From the NCBI RefSeq assembly GCF_026627255.1, contig NZ_JAPNLM010000013.1, forward strand, positions 1 through 64,000: 64,000 nucleotides of DNA, written 5' to 3'. A program made the position numbers and the translations under genes. Numbering within the stretch: the stretch's first letter is position 1; the number at the start of each line of letters is the position of its first letter. This stretch comes from Streptomyces antarcticus (GTDB lineage: Bacteria; Actinomycetota; Actinomycetes; Streptomycetales; Streptomycetaceae). Below the pieces are notes generated by a model, which was not told the origin of the DNA, did not search any database, and saw only the letters and a program-made list of their open reading frames with translations. Of this stretch, positions 6,773 to 40,088 are shown piece by piece.

Positions 6773-7273
6773 ATGCACCGCACGAAGCCGTCCCGCGCCC
6801 GCCTCCTCGTCCCGTCGGCCCTCGCCGTCCTCATACTGTCCGGCGCGGCCGCCCCTGCGGTCGCGGCGGACGGTGCCGGCTCCGCCGAACTGACGAAGCG
6901 GGTCGCGGCCGTCCAGCAGAAGATCGAGACGATCGAGGGGCGGGCCGCGGCCGGTCCGATCGACGACCTCCTCGCGGGCCTTTCGAAGACCATCGCGGAC
7001 CTCCTCAAGTCCCTGGAGGGCCTGCTGCCCGCCGGGGTGAAGATCCCGCCGATCGTGCTGCCGAAGCTCCCGGAGCTGCCGGCCGTCCCCGGCCTGCCCA
7101 GCATCCCGGTCCCCCCGGTGGAGGTGCCCGCGCTCCCGCCGGTCGGCGGGGTGCCCGCGCTGCCGCCCGTGGGCGGGGTGCCCGCGCTGCCGCCCGTCGG
7201 AGGGGCGCCCGCGCTGCCGACCGACCTGGTGCCCGACCTCCCCGCCATCCCCGGGATCCCCGACCTCCCGTAG
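6773..7273 (+). CDS. Secreted Pro/Val-rich repeat protein, unknown function
   Basis: 166 residues from the ATG at 6773, which has a strong ribosome site (AGGAGAAGG) 9 bp upstream. Signal peptide MHRTKPSRARLLVPSALAVL ends near residue 32 (AVAA). The first half of the mature protein is helical and amphipathic (LTKRVAAVQQKIETIEGR, DLLAGLSKTIADLLKSLEGL). The second half is a low-complexity stalk with repeats of ALPPVGGVP spanning about residues 100-150, and ends PAIPGIPDLP. There are no cysteines and no sorting motif. It is embedded between a rodlin and a chaplin gene, so a role in the aerial surface layer is plausible but unproven. Confidence 0.75.
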   Translation: MHRTKPSRARLLVPSALAVLILSGAAAPAVAADGAGSAELTKRVAAVQQKIETIEGRAAAGPIDDLLAGLSKTIADLLKSLEGLLPAGVKIPPIVLPKLPELPAVPGLPSIPVPPVEVPALPPVGGVPALPPVGGVPALPPVGGAPALPTDLVPDLPAIPGIPDLP

Positions 7274-33017: not shown

Positions 33018-33731
33018 TCAGAGCACGACGTGGTCCGGGCGGCCGCCCCGGGTGGCCAGGGTCAGGCCGACGGCGATCGTGGCCGTCGCGGCGAGGCCCG
33101 CGTACAGGACGGCGTACGGGCCCGCCCAGGTGCAGGCCAGGATCACGAGGGCGGCGAGCGGCAGGGTCAGCTGCTGGGCGACGCCGCGCTTGAAGTAGCG
33201 GGAGTGCAGCAGCCACACCATCAGCAGGAAGAGCGCGGACGGGATGGTGACGGCGGCGTTCGCCGCGGCCTGGGAGATGTGCGCCTTGCCGACCGCGTGC
33301 TCGACGGCGACCTCGATGCCCGCCCCGATCGCCGCGCCCGAAGCGAAGATCAGCAGGTGGCCGTAGCCCCACGGGATGGCCTCGCGGTTGGAGGTCAGCC
33401 GCTGGTGCATCGGGACCGCGAAGTAGATCCACCAGGCGGCGAAGACGATCAGCAGGCCGCCCGCTGCGATGGGCAGCAGCTCGCCCAGGGCCTCGTGCTC
33501 GTCGAGCGCCGACTTCACCGCCACCGTGCTCGCGGCGATCGTCTCGCCCAGCACGATGATGGTGAACAGGCCGTACCGCTCCACGATGTGGTGCGCGTGC
33601 CACGGCGTCTGGTGGCCGCGCTCGGCCACCACCGGCACCAGCAGCTCGGCCGCGGCCACCACCAGGAACAGCCACCGCTTCAGGTCGCCGGGGGCGAACA
33701 GCAGCGCCACCCACCCCGCCTGGCAGACCAT
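33018..33731 (-). pseudogene. ltrA: ltrA (low temperature requirement A) C-terminal fragment
   Basis: 237 codons from an ATG at 33731 to the stop at 33018. The sequence is the C-terminal two-thirds of the LtrA membrane protein family: VCQAGWVALLFAPGDLKRWL, HAHHIVERYGLFTIIVLGET, WWIYFAVPMHQRLTSNREAI. In intact homologues VCQAGW lies about 75-80 residues after the segment that ends the other fragment at 37204-37425. The intervening residues are missing here and 3.5 kb of unrelated DNA is present instead. The fragment keeps about six membrane helices and could in principle still be made, but it lacks the N-terminal signature and is most likely dead. Confidence 0.85.
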
Positions 33732-33860
33732 ATCTTTCGGCTCTTCTCGGAAACGCCCACGTTTCGACCCCTCAAGTAGATGATCAGGCCCTCGGCCCCG
33801 TACTCGCTGCCTTCCTGGTGGCTTGCACGGGGCTTATTCATTTCTGGCGATTCGTCAGTT

Positions 33861-35201
33861 CTAGCGAGGCAGCAAGCTTGGTGGCGTCACAAGTCGGGCC
33901 CGCTCAGACAGGTCTCGCGCTGTGTGGTTCTTCAGGTAGGGGCGAATCCGGCTGTGCATGGCGGCAATGCTTCGGTCACACTGCCCGGACTGCACTAGCG
34001 GATATATGTCCAGGACCCTGCCCCACGTTTCACAAGCCGCTTCCAAGTGCCCGACTTCCAATTGCCGTTCGGCCAGCATGGACAGATAGCGGATGCTGGT
34101 CCGCCGGAATGCGCTCGGCCGTAGCCTGTCCGATTCCTTGAGCGAGGCAATGGAGCCAGCCACGTCGCCCAGTTCGTAGCGCACCTGTCCCACGTGATAG
34201 GCCAGTGAAGAAGGGTTGTAGGACCCGAATGTCTTGGACTGCGACTCGGCTTTCTCCATTGCCACTTCGGCCTCACCAATGTAACGCAGTGCCGTTCGGC
34301 TTTCGCCTTCTTGGGCTGCTGCATGCGCCTGCTGTCCGGCGAGGAATGCGCGCATCCTGGGGCCAGCCTGAGGGGAAGCGGCGGCAGCAGCGTCAGCAAG
34401 CCTTAGCGCTTCCGCACCGTGCCCCACGTCGACCGCCTGCACACTCATTCCCCGAAGGGTGGTGCAGAACGTCAGGTGATCCTCTGAGGCTCCGGCCAGT
34501 TCCAGTGCCCTGAGATAATAACCCTGGGCCGTTCCATGTACGCCCTCATCAACGGCCATGTAGCCCGTCAGGTAGCAAAGGTCAGACGCTGCCGCCATCA
34601 TCGCTTTCCGAACACTCTCCGGAGCGTCAGCGCGCAGATAAGGGGCCACGGTGTTGACCATGTATGCGGCAGCCATGGGACGTGCTGTCCGGCCGCCGAA
34701 TTGATCGTCAATGTCTGACAGTCGTTCCGTCATGGCGATGACCGACTGGACATCGGGCAGCCCTATGCGCTGAGTCTCGCCGCTTTGGGCGGCTTCCATT
34801 CGGCCGACCACGTCCGGCCAATTGGGCACGGTTAGGGCGACAGAGAACAGACCGACTCCGAGCACGCTCCGGCGCGACGGGTCCATATCTTGCCTCCCCA
34901 GGTCCAGCAGCCCTTCCACGGTACTGGGGAGCGCGCTGGACTCTTCGGCGGGAGGGGGCGGGAATCCCGCTTCGCTGTGCGTGATGGGGCGGCCGAGCTT
35001 TCGGGCCAGAGCTTCCAGGATCAGCGGGCGGACGGTCTCTTTGGGCATGTGCCCCTTGAGCCACTGGTGCACTGAGGGTTCGCGGTATTTGAGGGGTGTT
35101 CCCCGCTCGGTGCCCAGCTTGTTGACCTCTTGGGCGAACTGGCGCAGCGTCCAGCCGGTTTGCCGGTGCAGTCGGGCAAGCGATTCGTTGGGACTGGTCA
35201 C
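33861..35201 (-). CDS. XRE-type regulator with TPR-like sensor region
   Basis: 446 residues. Residues about 12-75 form a helix-turn-helix (LARLHRQTGWTLRQFAQEVN, PSVHQWLKGHMPKETVRPLI). The remaining 350 residues are all-helical with TPR-like repeats (AVDEGVHGTAQGYYLRALEL, SSLAYHVGQVRYELGDVAGS). The layout resembles the NsdA-like and peptide-sensing HTH-TPR regulators of Streptomyces. It is divergent from the four-gene kinase operon at 35355, with a palindrome (35232-35246) in the 153-bp gap, so it probably controls that operon. Codon use is less GC-biased than in the surrounding chromosome, consistent with transfer. Confidence 0.85.
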   Translation of the reverse strand: MTSPNESLARLHRQTGWTLRQFAQEVNKLGTERGTPLKYREPSVHQWLKGHMPKETVRPLILEALARKLGRPITHSEAGFPPPPAEESSALPSTVEGLLDLGRQDMDPSRRSVLGVGLFSVALTVPNWPDVVGRMEAAQSGETQRIGLPDVQSVIAMTERLSDIDDQFGGRTARPMAAAYMVNTVAPYLRADAPESVRKAMMAAASDLCYLTGYMAVDEGVHGTAQGYYLRALELAGASEDHLTFCTTLRGMSVQAVDVGHGAEALRLADAAAAASPQAGPRMRAFLAGQQAHAAAQEGESRTALRYIGEAEVAMEKAESQSKTFGSYNPSSLAYHVGQVRYELGDVAGSIASLKESDRLRPSAFRRTSIRYLSMLAERQLEVGHLEAACETWGRVLDIYPLVQSGQCDRSIAAMHSRIRPYLKNHTARDLSERARLVTPPSLLPR

Positions 35202-35231
35202 CAGTCATCAACTCCCCACGTCTTCAAGCCG

Positions 35232-35246
35232 CTTAAAGCTCTTAAG
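35232..35246. promoter_or_regulatory. Candidate operator palindrome of the cassette
   Basis: CTTAA-AGCTC-TTAAG, an inverted repeat with 5-bp arms, lies 31 bp upstream of the regulator start in the gap shared with the divergent operon. A role as regulator binding site is inferred. Confidence 0.45.
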
Positions 35247-35354
35247 TCCTGGCGCTGTTGCAACGGTACCCCTCTGCCGTGGTCACGCGGTTGCCTTCTG
35301 TGAGCAGCCGAACGAGCACGAGAGGTGCAGCCATGAGCAGCCCTGAGAGCGCAC

Positions 35355-35585
35355 GTGAGCACCCCCGGGACTGGGAGGCGGGGGAAAACGGCGCTGGACG
35401 TCTCCACGGGCCGTGTGGGCCGCGTCATGGGCCACGTGGGACCCCGCTACCAACTTCGCCCGCTGAATGGTGGCCGGGAGTGGGAGGCCGACCCGGAGAG
35501 CCTGAAGGCCGCCTACCAGTCGGACGCCCTGAGTGCTGCTGTGGTCACCGCCAACACGAGCCAGCGGATAAGGGAGCGGATGTGA
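35355..35585 (+). CDS. Small cassette protein 1 (unknown; VGRVMGHVGPRYQL type)
   Basis: 76 residues from a GTG at 35355. The core VGRVMGHVGPRYQLRPLNGG followed by REWEADPESLKAA resembles a small protein often found beside XRE/TPR regulators and kinases in Streptomyces; I know no function. It looks like a compact beta-barrel. The start is uncertain: an ATG at 35333 has a better ribosome site (GAGAGG) but reads into another frame, so either the GTG is used or a frameshift is present near 35350. The stop overlaps the next start (GTGA). Confidence 0.65.
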   Translation: MSTPGTGRRGKTALDVSTGRVGRVMGHVGPRYQLRPLNGGREWEADPESLKAAYQSDALSAAVVTANTSQRIRERM

Positions 35586-35758
35586 GAAGGCTCCTCAGGT
35601 TCACCCCGGAACAGCGCGCGGAGATCGACGCCGGATTGGTGCGGATCTTCGCGGAGCGGGAGGCCCAGGAGTGGGAGGCGGCCATATGGCGTGCGGCTCC
35701 CGTCCTTGTTCGACGTGCTGCGGAACAGCTCATCCAACACAAGGAGGCACAGCCATGA
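35582..35758 (+). CDS. Small cassette protein 2 (helical, unknown)
   Basis: 58 residues from a GTG at 35582 that overlaps the previous stop. Sequence MRRLLRFTPEQRAEIDAGLV continues as a charged amphipathic helix (AEREAQEWEAAIWRAAPVLV) ending QLIQHKEAQP. No membrane helix, cysteines or leader motif. Its stop overlaps the next start by 4 bp (ATGA at 35755), so translation is tightly coupled with both neighbours. This supports it being real despite its size. Confidence 0.6.
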   Translation: MRRLLRFTPEQRAEIDAGLVRIFAEREAQEWEAAIWRAAPVLVRRAAEQLIQHKEAQP

Positions 35759-36198
35759 CGGCAACCGCGAACGACCTTCGGACCGGCCGCGCGCTGGTCA
35801 GCTCGGATCTGTTCGACAGCATCGCCGAGTTCACCGTGACCCACTTCGGCTACGCCCCGACGGAGGCGGAGCAGGCAACGGATCAGGCCCTCGCGTTCCT
35901 CGCCACGGTCGGCACGGCCACGGTGAAGATGGTCCCGAGCGACGACGTGGACGGCGCGCTGCACTCGTTCATCCTGCACACCGCCGACTATCGCGAGTTC
36001 TGCGAGACGTACGCGGGCCGGTTCCTGGAACACAACCCGCGCCCGGGTGGTGGTGGCCGGGTCCTGGCCGAGGTGCAGGCGACGGCGCACGCGATCAAGA
36101 ACAGCGGGTTCATGGTGCTGGATGCGCTGTGGACCGTGAACGGTGAGAACGCTGCGCAGTGCGACTCTGACTGTGGGCGCGATTACCGGGCCGCCTGA
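35755..36198 (+). CDS. GRDP-like (glycine-rich-domain-protein-like) small protein
   Basis: 147 residues with the ribosome site AAGGAGG 8 bp upstream of the ATG. The central part (EQATDQALAFLATVGTATVK, VDGALHSFILHTADYREFCE, then RFLEHNP) resembles the helical GRDP-like domain found in plant GRDP and bacterial proteins. The C-terminal 40 residues carry VMVLDALWTVN-like text and a Cys pair in AAQCDSDCGRDYRAA. Function of the bacterial proteins is unknown. Being followed by a kinase gene, it might be its substrate or a scaffold; that is a guess. Confidence 0.65.
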   Translation: MTATANDLRTGRALVSSDLFDSIAEFTVTHFGYAPTEAEQATDQALAFLATVGTATVKMVPSDDVDGALHSFILHTADYREFCETYAGRFLEHNPRPGGGGRVLAEVQATAHAIKNSGFMVLDALWTVNGENAAQCDSDCGRDYRAA

Positions 36199-36276
36199 CT
36201 GCCGGCCGAACCAGACAGGTGAAGAGGGGGCCGGTCGCCAACTACGGTGACCGGCCTCGCTGTTGGAAGGTGAAGC

Positions 36277-37104
36277 ATGATTTTCGATGGCCCGTACAGC
36301 CCGCCGGACGGTGCGCTGCAACTCCTCAATCCGGGCCCCGCCGAACTGGTCCTCAACCGGCGCGGGTCGTCTGTCTGGAAGATGAAGACGGAGGTTGGTC
36401 CGTACGCGGTGAAGGTCGGCTACCCGAGTCGGACGCACGCATGGACCGCGCTTGCCCCTGCCCGTGAAGCCGCCGTTCTGCGACAGCTCACCCATGAGCG
36501 GATCTTCAGCGGGGAGTGGGAGCACGGGACGTGGGGCGCTCAGCCGTGGCGGCGTGGCGAGAGCCTCTATGACCGGTGGGCACCCTGCCGGGACGGGAAG
36601 GCTCAGCCGAACATCGGAGAGGCCCTGTCGTGCGCCGTGGCGCTGTCGGGACTGCACGGAATGGGATGGGTGCACGGGGATGTGCAGCCCGCGCATTTCC
36701 TCCTGGGTGAGGTGGGCGGCGCGTTCCTGATCGATCTTGCGCTGTCCAGCGGAGGGCGAATTCCCCGCGCCTATGACTTCCCGTACCGGGGCTGTCTCGT
36801 CCACTACGAAGCGCCGGAAGTCTCGGGCAGCGTGTTGGAGTCGGGCACAGCGACGCCGACACAGGAAGCTGACGTGTACGCACTGGGAGCGGCACTGTTC
36901 ATCAGCGCGACGGGATGGCGGCACGTCGCCTACCCGGACGATGCTTCCCGGGAGGTTCAGCGGCAAGCCATCGTGGCGGGCCCTCACCGCCCCGTGAACG
37001 TCCCCGGAGCGCTGGGTGGTCTCATCCCTCACATGCTGACCCGTTCGCCCGCTGACCGGCCTACAAGTGCCGAGGTCTGCGAGAGGCTGAGCGCGGCTCT
37101 GTAG
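36277..37104 (+). CDS. Atypical protein-kinase-like enzyme
   Basis: 275 residues covering a whole compact kinase fold. Lys46 in GPYAVKVGYP is the ATP-binding lysine. The catalytic loop is HGDVQPAHFLL: Asp135 is kept but the usual HRD is HGD and the metal-binding Asn is replaced by His140. DFG is replaced by DLA (Asp153, LIDLALSS). An APE motif (HYEAPEVSG) and the helix EADVYALGAALFISATGW are present. Without a membrane anchor or sensor domain it should be cytoplasmic. The HGD loop recalls small-molecule phosphotransferases and LanKC-type kinases, so the substrate may not be Ser/Thr of a protein. Last gene of the cassette operon. Confidence 0.82.
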   Translation: MIFDGPYSPPDGALQLLNPGPAELVLNRRGSSVWKMKTEVGPYAVKVGYPSRTHAWTALAPAREAAVLRQLTHERIFSGEWEHGTWGAQPWRRGESLYDRWAPCRDGKAQPNIGEALSCAVALSGLHGMGWVHGDVQPAHFLLGEVGGAFLIDLALSSGGRIPRAYDFPYRGCLVHYEAPEVSGSVLESGTATPTQEADVYALGAALFISATGWRHVAYPDDASREVQRQAIVAGPHRPVNVPGALGGLIPHMLTRSPADRPTSAEVCERLSAAL

Positions 37105-37203
37105 GGCTCAGCCTGGCCCCGTTTGTGTGCTTCCTCATGGCGCATGGGCGGGGCTTCCTGCTGTGCCGATGGTCCCCGGACCAGGGGAGACGCTAGGCTC
37201 AGA

Positions 37204-37425
37204 TCAACCTGTTGCACCGTTAGGCCACGCCCACCACACGCCGAAGAAGACGAAGAAGTAGCCGATCACCCCGGTCAGGGGGTGACCCTCGGCCACCGCG
37301 TGCACCAGCCGGGCACCGCACTGGGCGATCGCGACGACGAAGCAGAGGTCGAAGAACAGCTCCAGCGGGGTCGCCGTGCGGTGCCCCTCGTCGGGACTGC
37401 GGGCGATCATGGGTGAGTAGGCCAT
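37204..37425 (-). pseudogene. ltrA: ltrA N-terminal fragment
   Basis: 73 codons from the ATG at 37425 (or 37410) to a TGA at 37204. The text HRTATPLELFFDLCFVVAIA and VIGYFFVFFGVWWAW is the conserved N-terminus and first helices of LtrA. After WWAW the frame enters foreign sequence (PNGATG, stop), whereas intact homologues continue with a residue string of the type MNFTWFASAYD. The rest of the gene is at 33018-33731. The start lies 28 bp after the stop of the CbiX-like remnant, so both were once one operon. Confidence 0.85.
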
Positions 37426-37453: not shown

Positions 37454-37799
37454 TCAGCAGGCCAGGCGCGCTGCCTGGACCGCCGCGGTGCCCCGCGCGG
37501 AGGCCTCGTACCGTTCCAGCACCAGCCGGGCCACGCGCGGGTGGTCGGCCGGCGGCTCCGACACCGTCCACGCGCCGCAGCCCGCCAGCGCCTGCGTGAA
37601 CCGGCCCGGGGCCGGCAGGTGCGCCGCCACCGCGATCCGGCGGTGCCCGGCCGCCCGGAGCGCGGCCGGCGCCTCGGGTACGGCCGCCCCGCCGACGTCA
37701 GGTACGCCGGGACCACCGGCACCGGAGCCGGGCCGCCGTCGTCCGCGAGCAGCCCCGCGAGCCGCGCCGCGCACAGGGCTGTACCGGAGGTGCCGCGGA
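37454..37799 (-). pseudogene. Sirohydrochlorin chelatase (CbiX-like) remnant with frameshift
   Basis: C-terminal part of a CbiX-family chelatase read on the minus strand. The segment ALCAARLAGLLADDGG ... VVPAYLTSAG is in one frame down to about 37695. From there AAVPEAPAALRAAGHRRIAV, LPAPGRFTQALAGCGAW and DHPRVARLVLERYEAS continue in another frame to the stop at 37454. One missing base in the G-run near 37690 would restore a single frame. The N-terminal half of the enzyme (first metal-binding His region) is absent: sequence before 37799 belongs to the narK 5' region. CbiX inserts metal into sirohydrochlorin to make siroheme for nitrite/sulfite reductases, which fits the NarK neighbour. Confidence 0.7.
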
Positions 37800-37803
37800 T
37801 GCG

Positions 37804-39129
37804 GTGGGTCCTTTTGACTTCAGGAAGTGCAATGAGTACCGCCACCAAGGAAGGGCAGAGGTCGCTCGCCGATCCGGCGCAGTACTCGTGGCCTTCGTGG
37901 TCTGGCAGGTCTGGAGCATCACGGCGACCAGCCTCAAGGACGTCGGCTTCGGCTTCTCGCAGTCCCAGCTGTTCTGGCTGACGGCGGTGCCCGGCATCAC
38001 CGGCGGCACCGCGCGGATCCTCTACACGTTCATCGGCCCGATGATCGGCCAGCGGCGCTTCACCGCGGTTTCGACGCTCGTGCTGATCGTCCCGCTGCTG
38101 TGGCTGGGCTTCGCGGTGCAGAACCCGGACACCCCGTACAGCACCATGATCGCGATCGCCGCCCTGTGCGGCATCGGCGGCGCCAACTTCTCCTCCTCGC
38201 TGGCGAACATCGGCTTCTTCTACCCGAAGCAGGAGAAGGGCAACGCGACCGGCATCAACGGCGGCCTGGGCAACCTCGGCGTCTCGGTCGTCCAGCTCCT
38301 CACCCCGATCCTGATCACGTCCTCGGTCCTCGCGATCGGCGCGGGCCAGAAGAAGGCGGACGGCTCGGAGATCTACCTCCAGAACGCCGCCTTCGTGTGG
38401 GTGCCGGTCCTGATCGTGCTGGCGGCCGTCGCGTGGTTCGGGCAGAACGACCTGAAGGTGGCCTCCACGCCCTTCAGCCAGCAGAAGATCATCTTCAAGC
38501 GCAAGCACAACTGGGTGATGACCTGGCTCTACGTCGGCACCTTCGGCTCCTTCATCGGCTTCGCGGCGGCGCTCCCGCTGCTGATCAAGACCACCTTCCC
38601 GGCGTACCCGGTGGCCACCTACGCCTGGATGGGCCCGGCGCTGGGCGCGCTGGCCCGCTGGGCGGGCGGCTGGATCGCCGACAAGCTGGGCGGCGCCCTG
38701 GTGACGATCCTGTCCTTCGTGGGCATGGCCGCGTCGATCATCGGCGTGATCACCTTCCTGCCGGCCGGCTCGGACCAGGGCTCGTTCTACGGCTTCTTCT
38801 TCTGTTTCCTGTCGGCCTTCTTCTTCTCGGGCATCGGCAACGGCTCGACCTTCCGGCAGATCCCCGTCATCTTCCGCGGCCAGCACCTGAAGGGCCTGAC
38901 GGAGGGCACCCCGGAGTACGCCTCCGCGCTGAAGCAGGCGGAGATCGAGTCGGGCGCGGTGACCGGTTTCACGGCCGCCATCGCCGCCTACGGCTTCTTC
39001 TTCATCCCGGCGATGTTCGCGAACTTCGCCGTGACGAGCGCGATGTGGGGCTTCGTGGCCTTCTACGCCTCGTGCGTGGTGGTGGCCTGGTGGTTCTACG
39101 CCCGCAAGGGCGCGGAAGCCCCCAGCTGA
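37804..39129 (+). CDS. narK: NarK-type nitrate/nitrite MFS transporter, 5' end damaged
   Basis: Open frame of 441 codons; from residue about 25 it is a clear NarK-family protein (AVLVAFVVWQVWSITATSLK, AALCGIGGANFSSSLANIGF, the nitrate signature GINGGLGNLGVSVVQLLTP, SFIGFAAALPLLI). Members exchange nitrate and nitrite. The normal N-terminus is lacking. A good start (AGGAAG then ATG at 37832, reading MSTATKEGQRSLADPAQ) is in a different frame from the body, and the in-frame GTG at 37804 gives implausible residues. Either a frameshift or small deletion inactivated the gene near 37850-37880, or the assembly has an error. Treat as probable pseudogene. Confidence 0.75.
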   Translation: MGPFDFRKCNEYRHQGRAEVARRSGAVLVAFVVWQVWSITATSLKDVGFGFSQSQLFWLTAVPGITGGTARILYTFIGPMIGQRRFTAVSTLVLIVPLLWLGFAVQNPDTPYSTMIAIAALCGIGGANFSSSLANIGFFYPKQEKGNATGINGGLGNLGVSVVQLLTPILITSSVLAIGAGQKKADGSEIYLQNAAFVWVPVLIVLAAVAWFGQNDLKVASTPFSQQKIIFKRKHNWVMTWLYVGTFGSFIGFAAALPLLIKTTFPAYPVATYAWMGPALGALARWAGGWIADKLGGALVTILSFVGMAASIIGVITFLPAGSDQGSFYGFFFCFLSAFFFSGIGNGSTFRQIPVIFRGQHLKGLTEGTPEYASALKQAEIESGAVTGFTAAIAAYGFFFIPAMFANFAVTSAMWGFVAFYASCVVVAWWFYARKGAEAPS

Positions 39130-39434: not shown

Positions 39435-39965
39435 CTAGAACGCGTCGCGCGACCCCGTGGGACCCGTACCCGTCGGACCTGACCCCGTCGTCCCCGCGCC
39501 GTCGCCGTTGGCGCCGCGCTGGGCGACCAGGGTGTCCCGGATCTCCTTGAGGACCTCCAGCTCGGTGATCTCCATGGTCTCCTTGACGCCTTCCTTGGCC
39601 TTGCGGCGCGCCTCCACCTTGGCGAGGTACTTCGCCATCGGCAGCACCATCAGGAAGTAGACGACGGCCGCGGTGATCACGAAGGTGAGCGCCGCGTTGA
39701 GGACCGAGCCCCAGAGGATCTCGACACCCGTGGGCTGCCCCTTCCCGTCGATGCCGCACGGGTCCTTGATGCACGACTTGTAGACATCGAGGTTCTTGGT
39801 CCCGATGGCGCCCACCAGCGGTCCGATGATCCCCTTGACGATGGAGTTCACGATGTTCGTGAACGCCGCGCCGATGACCACGGCGACCGCCAGGTCGACC
39901 ACGTTGCCGCGCATCAGGAAGGCCTTGAAGCCCGCCAGGACGCTCTCCTTCTTCTTCTCGCTCAC
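39435..39965 (-). CDS. mscL: Large-conductance mechanosensitive channel
   Basis: The GTG at 39965 (VSEKKKESVLAGFKAFLMRG) is chosen because AAGAAGGGC precedes it and homologues start at this point; the ATG at 39983 would add six residues. TM1 is LMRGNVVDLAVAVVIGAAFT, the pore helix region with the conserved N-x-D-L-A pattern; TM2 is FVITAAVVYFLMVLPMAKYL. A loop with two cysteines (CIKDPCGIDG) lies between. The channel opens under membrane tension to release solutes during osmotic downshock. A Gly/Thr-rich tail follows the C-terminal helix bundle. Confidence 0.95.
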   Translation of the reverse strand: MSEKKKESVLAGFKAFLMRGNVVDLAVAVVIGAAFTNIVNSIVKGIIGPLVGAIGTKNLDVYKSCIKDPCGIDGKGQPTGVEILWGSVLNAALTFVITAAVVYFLMVLPMAKYLAKVEARRKAKEGVKETMEITELEVLKEIRDTLVAQRGANGDGAGTTGSGPTGTGPTGSRDAF

Positions 39966-40088
39966 CACTGAGCCCTTCTTCATATGTGCCGATTTCGGAG
40001 CCAACGGTTCCGAAAACTACGGCAGTCCGGGCCCGGCGTGTCCAATCGGGGCGCAGCTCGAGGTGACTTGACTGTGCGCGTGTGCGAT

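What the first reader, a model, noticed from the sequence alone, without database searches (positions are those of the whole stretch)
33018..37425. ltrA is split in two by a 3.5-kb lower-GC insert
Residue strings typical of LtrA end at VWWAW on the minus strand at 37215 and resume at VCQAGW near 33730. Between them is 3.5 kb with five genes and weaker third-position GC bias, while about 75-80 codons of ltrA are gone. No recombinase or terminal repeats are visible, so the entry mechanism is open.
Basis: partly seen in the sequence, partly recalled or inferred. Interest (0 to 1): 0.8.

Follow-up and report, generated by a model that had tools for sequence, protein, structure and literature searches.

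The report
Foreign gene cassette interrupting ltrA
In this Streptomyces-like genome a 3.5-kb piece of DNA from another lineage, carrying a small regulator-and-kinase gene set, sits in the middle of a dispensable membrane-protein gene and replaces 85 of its codons, most likely through error-prone break repair rather than a jumping element.

Summary
ltrA (PF06772) is split: 5' part 37225-37425(-), 3' part 33018-33731(-). Between them lie 3,493 bp (33732-37224; GC 65.2%, window 72.8%) in place of 85 codons kept by relative G012. The insert is an accessory cassette: an NsdA-family regulator facing S1, S2, an uncharacterised 147-aa protein and a kinase-like protein. Streptomyces chryseus has the block at 89% elsewhere. 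Cassette parts occur in at least 115 of 392 genus genomes, own included; 59 right flanks form 34 clusters. The edges are not element ends: the left one carries the upstream region and nine codons of an HNH-nuclease gene cut by the junction. No recombinase was found in the insert; no terminal repeats or target duplication. Best mechanism: illegitimate end joining that captured foreign DNA and deleted target DNA, as seen with endogenous DNA in S. ambofaciens (PMC5869714); Ku is present. ltrA looks dispensable: 81 of 392 genomes gave no match, and of six weak-hit loci read, three carry a damaged ltrA beside mscL. A well-resolved but ordinary capture event; the cassette's function is the more interesting open point.

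The parts
37225..37425 (-). ltrA 5' fragment (67 codons); its frame runs on into the insert and stops at 37204
   Evidence: Pfam PF06772 profile 2-49; 84% to G012 ltrA up to 37225
33018..33731 (-). ltrA 3' fragment; an ATG at 33731 sits at the junction
   Evidence: PF06772 profile 131-353; 87% to G012 from V155
33732..37224 (.). insert, 3,493 bp, replacing 255 bp of ltrA
33732..33760 (-). stub of an HNH_2 endonuclease gene: GTG start at 33760, nine codons plus 2 nt, cut by the ltrA junction
   Evidence: alignment to HNH genes of G006, G216 and G372; PF13391 in the G006 protein
33761..33860 (-). region upstream of the HNH start, carried over from the donor
   Evidence: 78% to G006 (to 33858) and to G372 (to 33835); not found beside the S. 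chryseus cassette
33861..35201 (-). REG: NsdA-family TPR regulator, 446 aa
   Evidence: NF053720 E 3.8e-131; S. chryseus 90% aa, dN 0.06, dS 0.68
35333..35585 (+). S1: small protein, frameshifted by one extra A in the run 35385-35388
   Evidence: S. chryseus homologue in one frame; family alignment
35582..35758 (+). S2: 58-aa protein
   Evidence: S. chryseus 96% nt; hit also in S. purpureus L088
35755..36198 (+). 147-aa protein (GRDP in scripts, a working label from recall only) with conserved HSFILHT-like core and C-terminal CDSDCGR
   Evidence: 25-member alignment, 77% mean column identity; no Pfam family over its cut-off
36277..37104 (+). KIN: protein-kinase-like, 275 aa; K46, E64, D135 (HGDVQPxH) and D153 invariant in 15 aligned sequences
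   Evidence: PF00069 E 4.6e-8; alignment
37105..37224 (.). tail after the kinase: terminator-like stretch (by eye) to about 37160 shared with S. chryseus and G081, then 64 bp of unknown origin
   Evidence: the 64-bp tail had no full-length match in 391 other genomes, two candidates scored in each
37457..37774 (-). cbiX-like remnant (named by eye; 5' end missing, frame broken) beside ltrA
   Evidence: homology to G012 ends at 37773
37804..39129 (+). narK-like MFS gene damaged at its 5' end; the nirBD-like stretch between it and cbiX in G012 is missing
   Evidence: MFS_1

Best explanation
A double-strand break or similar accident in a dispensable ltrA was repaired by illegitimate end joining. 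During repair a fragment of foreign Streptomyces DNA was ligated in and 255 bp of ltrA were lost. The fragment came from a donor in which the cassette (REG divergent from S1-S2-147-aa protein-KIN) lay next to an HNH-nuclease gene; the donor end fell nine codons into that gene. Shown: the split gene, the missing 85 codons, the relatedness of the insert to cassettes elsewhere, the truncated HNH gene at one edge, little shared sequence at the junctions, and Ku in the genome. Inferred: that a break came first, that Ku/LigD end joining did it, and that ltrA was intact until then. Inside the cassette, REG most likely represses the divergent operon, and KIN most likely phosphorylates a target, perhaps the 147-aa protein; both steps are inference.
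For: Empty-site relative G012 and 85-codon loss. The cassette in another place in S. chryseus at 89%, with a different neighbourhood. Donor edge cut inside an HNH gene whose orthologues read on. Insert edges extend 129 bp and about 64 bp beyond the segment shared with S. chryseus and G081, so the ends are not fixed. No recombinase among the insert proteins or in the 10 neighbouring proteins scanned; end repeats at chance size. Ku PF02735 at G000:C11. Precedent: in S. ambofaciens five insertions of 30 bp to 18.8 kb at break-healing sites, microhomology of 1-6 nt in half of the scars at the central site, and mutagenic repair nearly lost without kuA and lost without ligCD (PMC5869714, abstract and passages read). 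Next-door losses (cbiX-nirBD-narK) fit a region that has suffered other deletions.
Against: The published insertions were of the strain's own DNA; capture of foreign DNA was only proposed there. LigD was not searched for. Ku is common in the genus (recalled), so its presence discriminates weakly. Two homology-assisted crossovers in an unsampled relative, followed by spread through ordinary recombination of ltrA flanks, would leave the same picture. The 9-bp CAGGCGGGG common to ltrA and the G216 HNH gene lies a few nt from the left junction, so short homology may have helped. Misassembly cannot be excluded without reads.
Confidence: 0.7

Rival explanations
1. The insert is a mobile element (site-specific islet, transposon or AICE cargo) that moves by an enzyme supplied in trans.
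For: The cassette is nomadic: 34 clusters among 59 right flanks. The shared segment stops at nearly the same points in S. chryseus and G081 (33873/33861 and 37159/37160).
Against: Those stops are simply the regulator's stop codon and the kinase's terminator-like end. In the window the insert runs past both into donor DNA and cuts an HNH gene. No inverted or direct repeats beyond 4-7 nt at the ends; target DNA was deleted, not duplicated; the only tRNA in the window is 18 kb away.
Confidence: 0.12
2. Homologous recombination brought in a donor ltrA region that already carried the insert; the illegitimate event happened in another lineage.
For: Whole-locus exchange is common in Streptomyces (general knowledge). 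The flanks are 85% to G012, with no same-species genome to compare.
Against: The cassette is not at ltrA in the 7 genomes compared. This moves the event but does not change its mechanism.
Confidence: 0.12
3. The truncated HNH gene was the entry tool: an HNH nuclease cut ltrA and carried its neighbours in, like a homing event.
For: An HNH gene lies exactly at the left edge.
Against: Only nine codons remain; homing leaves the nuclease gene whole and follows flank homology (recalled). The family (HNH_2, PF13391) is restriction-like (recalled), and tblastn of the G006 HNH protein found nothing at 1e-3 in the 66 cassette loci held, window included.
Confidence: 0.03
4. Assembly artefact.
For: Draft of 89 contigs; broken frames in S1 and cbiX could reflect imperfect sequence.
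Against: Both ltrA halves flank the insert in order and orientation, no second ltrA or insert was found in the genome, and no N is present. A chimera would need two matching misjoins.
Confidence: 0.03

Closest known systems
NHEJ-linked DNA insertion at break sites in Streptomyces ambofaciens (Hoff et al. 2018, PMC5869714; abstract and passages read)
   Same: Insertion of DNA at a repair point with deletion of target bases and little or no microhomology; the sizes, 30 bp to 18.8 kb, include 3.5 kb
   Different: There the DNA was endogenous and the break was induced; here the DNA is from another lineage and the break is inferred
NsdA-family TPR regulators (NF053720) of Streptomyces
   Same: REG matches over 7-434 of 446 residues
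   Different: Far below the cut-offs for NsdA and NsdB themselves (72.9 of 830, 75.3 of 700 bits)
whiJ-bldB-abaA paralogue clusters (PMC10294661; abstract and passages read)
   Same: Multi-copy, scattered Streptomyces cassettes with a DNA-binding regulator beside small partner proteins
   Different: No DUF397/BldB or HATPase domain was recognised in this cassette by Pfam; it has a kinase-like protein instead
Kinase-like proteins of anti-phage system PD-T4-6 and of class IV lanthipeptide synthetases
   Same: KIN's kinase domain gives weak hits to both
   Different: The best hits cover about 150 residues of the domain and lie far under the lanthipeptide cut-off (46.5 of 650 bits); no cyclase domain and no PADLOC hit in the other four cassette proteins

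Membership tests
LtrA (PF06772) | Profile match over the gathering score | tested here: met
   Both fragments over 31.9 bits: 63 and 169
LtrA (PF06772) | One continuous reading frame over the 356 positions | tested here: not met
   Profile 50-130 missing, two frames 3.5 kb apart
Transposon or integrative element | Own recombinase in the insert | tested here: not met
   Pfam, NCBIfam and PADLOC on all five insert proteins and PHROGs on four (not S1) show none
Transposon or integrative element | Terminal inverted repeats or target duplication | tested here: not met
   Outer 30 bp: inverted match 4 nt, flank match 6 nt; target shorter by 255 bp
NHEJ capture | Ku in the host | tested here: met
   PF02735, E 3.5e-47
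NHEJ capture | LigD/LigC in the host | not tested
   No search made
NHEJ capture | Junctions with none to a few nt of shared sequence | tested here: inconclusive
   Right edge switches cleanly, left edge at most about 3 nt, judged from 75-85% relatives, not from the true parents
NHEJ capture | Dependence on ku/ligD | not testable with these tools
   Needs an experiment
NsdA-family regulators (NF053720) | Score over the curated cut-off (75 bits) | tested here: met
   438.6 bits
Protein kinase (PF00069) | Gathering score and catalytic residues | tested here: met
   33.2 of 31.7 bits; K46, E64, D135, D153 invariant in 15, but the catalytic-loop Asn position is His (residue roles recalled); activity not tested
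PD-T4-6 anti-phage kinase | Function in defence | not testable with these tools
   Only kinase-domain similarity, E 1.5e-10
RiPP (lanthipeptide-like) pathway | Modifying enzyme with lyase or cyclase and a precursor with a processed core | tested here: inconclusive
   No lyase or cyclase domain seen in the cassette; Ser138 of CDSDC is Ala in L086 and L075

The most novel reading that the evidence does not exclude
The nomadic cassette is an undescribed signalling or peptide-modifying module of Streptomyces: an NsdA-type repressor controls an atypical kinase (HGDVQPxH loop) whose dedicated partner is the 147-aa protein ending in the near-invariant CDSDCGRxY tail. Such modules would spread by end-joining capture of bare gene cassettes, without any mobile element.
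Probability: 0.3. Interest if true: 0.6.

Novelty: new member of a known kind. Interest (0 to 1): 0.4.

Why it matters
End joining has been proposed, but in the passages I read not shown, to bring foreign genes into Streptomyces without flanking homology. This locus is a natural candidate with a defined empty site, a near relative of the donor (S. chryseus, 89%) and a donor gene cut at the edge. It also draws attention to a widespread, apparently unnamed regulator-kinase cassette.

Tried and rejected
Rfam on 33-38 kb: nothing at E 0.1. Phages with the 147-aa protein: no match. Plasmids with the whole insert: 17 records, of which 14 match the regulator, 2 match about 110 bp at the regulator's 5' end and 1 matches about 95 bp of the 147-aa gene; none holds 80% of the insert. 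PDB by sequence for the 147-aa family: one hit at E 0.5. The AlphaFold model of the 147-aa protein (pLDDT 83) had no Foldseek match better than E 2.8 and VIA-align Z at most 2.6, residues 1-95 only; this does not show a new fold. The kinase model was poor (pLDDT 63) but gave kinase matches.

The rows labelled HNH are an artefact: the HNH query had no hit and the script reused the kinase profile; I disregarded them and checked by tblastn. The narK row of the GC3 table was read in the wrong frame and is not used. An earlier count gave about 54 flank contexts; the recount is 34 clusters among 59 right flanks and 45 among 52 left flanks. The left flanks were cut at a fixed distance, so they are less exact. 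Idea that S. purpureus shows a second gene interrupted by the cassette: left open, because its flanks are patchy and hold N runs. Higher dN/dS in the ltrA parts (0.092/0.273 and 0.122/0.501 against G012) than in the P450 gene (0.041/0.368) would fit relaxed constraint, but I had no control for ltrA's normal rate, so I do not rely on it. Literature: eight full-text searches listed no paper that by title or abstract treats this cassette; only the listed top results were seen, and subscription papers are not held.
Full report
Observation. The window is contig C4, 1-64000, of an 8.50-Mb genome in 89 contigs; all 38 named loci with relatives of the kinase come from Streptomyces or, in one case, an unclassified actinobacterium, so I take it to be a streptomycete. 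Pfam LtrA matches the genome twice, at 37219-37374(-) for profile 2-49 and 33075-33731(-) for profile 131-353. In G012 an intact 403-aa LtrA lies in the same neighbourhood: P450, ltrA, then genes I recognise by eye as cbiX, nirBD and narK. Window DNA matches it at 84% over the 200 bp up to W69 and at 87% over the 179 bp compared from V155. So 85 codons are gone and 3,493 bp stand in their place. Composition agrees: insert GC 0.652, window 0.728; GC3 0.705-0.885 in the insert genes against 0.928-0.987 in the P450 gene and the ltrA parts.

Is it real? Both halves are in order and orientation; no second ltrA (all 13 candidates scored) or second insert (best two candidates scored) was found in the genome; no N occurs. 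Reads were not available.

What the insert is. REG (33861-35201, minus) is an NsdA-family TPR regulator (NF053720, E 3.8e-131). Divergent from it run S1, S2, a 147-aa protein without a Pfam family and KIN, a kinase-like protein. S. chryseus JCM 4737 (L085) has 33873-37159 in one block at 89% in another setting. There S1 is in one frame; the window has one extra A at 35385-35388. Against S. chryseus, dN and dS are 0.061 and 0.681 for REG, 0.048 and 0.191 for the 147-aa protein, 0.034 and 0.223 for KIN, which indicates purifying selection; S2 (58 codons) has 0.039 and 0.048, too few changes to judge. The unequal dS values suggest a mosaic cassette. Parts of the cassette occur in 115 of 392 genus genomes at E 1e-40 or better, the window's own counted; the search scored two candidates per genome, so this is a lower bound. 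Of 62 kinase loci read (window included; chosen by similarity to the insert or the kinase, so not a random sample), 53 have the 147-aa gene just upstream, 37 a divergent regulator and 35 both; without three loci fetched twice the figures are 59, 50, 35 and 33. Some of the misses are contig ends or short stretches. Fifty-nine right flanks fall into 34 clusters, the largest of 18; singletons may include flanks too diverged to cluster.

The edges. From 33732 the window matches G006 (to 33858) and G372 (to 33835) at 78%; G098 has a 29-bp match; no other of the 392 genomes had a hit at 1e-4 with two candidates scored. In G006 this is the start and upstream region of a 256-aa HNH_2 protein; G216 and G372 have orthologues beginning GVSEKxRKILWVQAGG. 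The window has GVSEKSRK and then passes into ltrA. So the donor piece ended inside an HNH gene. HNH relatives of this kind are rare (8 of 295 genus genomes at 1e-15) and none was found in 66 cassette loci, so the donor itself has not been found. On the right, the segment shared with S. chryseus and G081 ends at 37159-37160; the last 64 bp have no full-length match in 391 other genomes, only one 25-bp match. ltrA switches to the insert cleanly at 37225/37224. At the left junction at most about 3 nt can be shared, though a 9-bp stretch common to ltrA and the G216 HNH gene lies a few nt away. The parents at hand are only 75-85% alike, so these figures are approximate.

Mechanism. No recombinase was found in the insert or among ten neighbouring proteins scanned, one of which had no Pfam hit; the rest of the window was not scanned. 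End repeats are at chance size. Target DNA was lost. Ku is present; LigD was not searched. In S. ambofaciens induced breaks healed with insertions of 30 bp to 18.8 kb, and mutagenic repair at the central site gave one clone without kuA and none without ligCD; the authors propose that foreign DNA could enter so (PMC5869714, abstract and passages). I therefore favour end-joining capture, at 0.7.

Why it was tolerated. Of 392 genus genomes, own included, 311 have an LtrA match and 81 do not; the search scored at most five candidates per genome, so some of the 81 may be misses. I then looked at 12 genomes picked for weak best hits: two (G225, G080) have diverged but nearly full-length copies, the others partial, split or very weak ones. 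I read six of these loci: beside mscL, ltrA has an in-frame internal deletion in G288, only a 5' stub in G305, and in G405 no recognisable 5' third and a broken frame. G190 and G208 have partial, diverged copies away from mscL; in G311 tblastn with the G012 protein found nothing. The gene is expendable and sometimes damaged. The window's copy may have been decaying anyway; next to it the cbiX-like gene lost its 5' part, the nirBD-like stretch (about 3.6 kb in G012) is gone, and the narK-like gene lost about 125 bp of 5' coding region. A gene matching the G012 nirB-like protein at 64% remains elsewhere in the genome.

Function of the cassette. The 147-aa family is strongly conserved (25 members, mean column identity 77%), with invariant H70, H75, C83, H93 and C136 and near-invariant C140; C140 is Asp in L120. 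A metal site is possible but untested. The kinase keeps K46, E64, D135 and D153 in 15 of 15 aligned sequences, with His for the usual Asn of the catalytic loop. Weak hits to lanthipeptide and PD-T4-6 kinases show a kinase domain, not membership. A regulatory module is my best guess; a peptide-modifying or defence role is not excluded.

Noticed in passing
window 37457-39129: cbiX-nirBD-narK remnant (names by eye): cbiX truncated and frame broken, nirBD lost and narK 5' end damaged relative to G012, within 1 kb of the ltrA insert.
   Followed up: partly
window 35385-35388: One extra A relative to S. chryseus breaks the frame of S1; could be a real mutation or a sequencing error.
   Followed up: partly
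L154, L155 and window 37225: Three damaged ltrA genes beside or near mscL lose homology within about 11 codons of one another (about residues 58, 65 and 69 in G012 numbering); a possible breakage hotspot, or chance with three cases.
   Followed up: no
L088 (Streptomyces purpureus) 1900-2360 and 6830-7260: The cassette there is flanked by rearranged pieces that look like acyl-CoA ligase and enoyl-CoA hydratase genes (recognised by eye), with N runs; possibly another patchwork insertion.
   Followed up: partly
L152, L154, L155 and window 39435-40004: mscL lies beside ltrA in these relatives as in the window, where cbiX and narK remnants stand between them; in G025, G014 and G030 the two regions are also close.
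   Followed up: no
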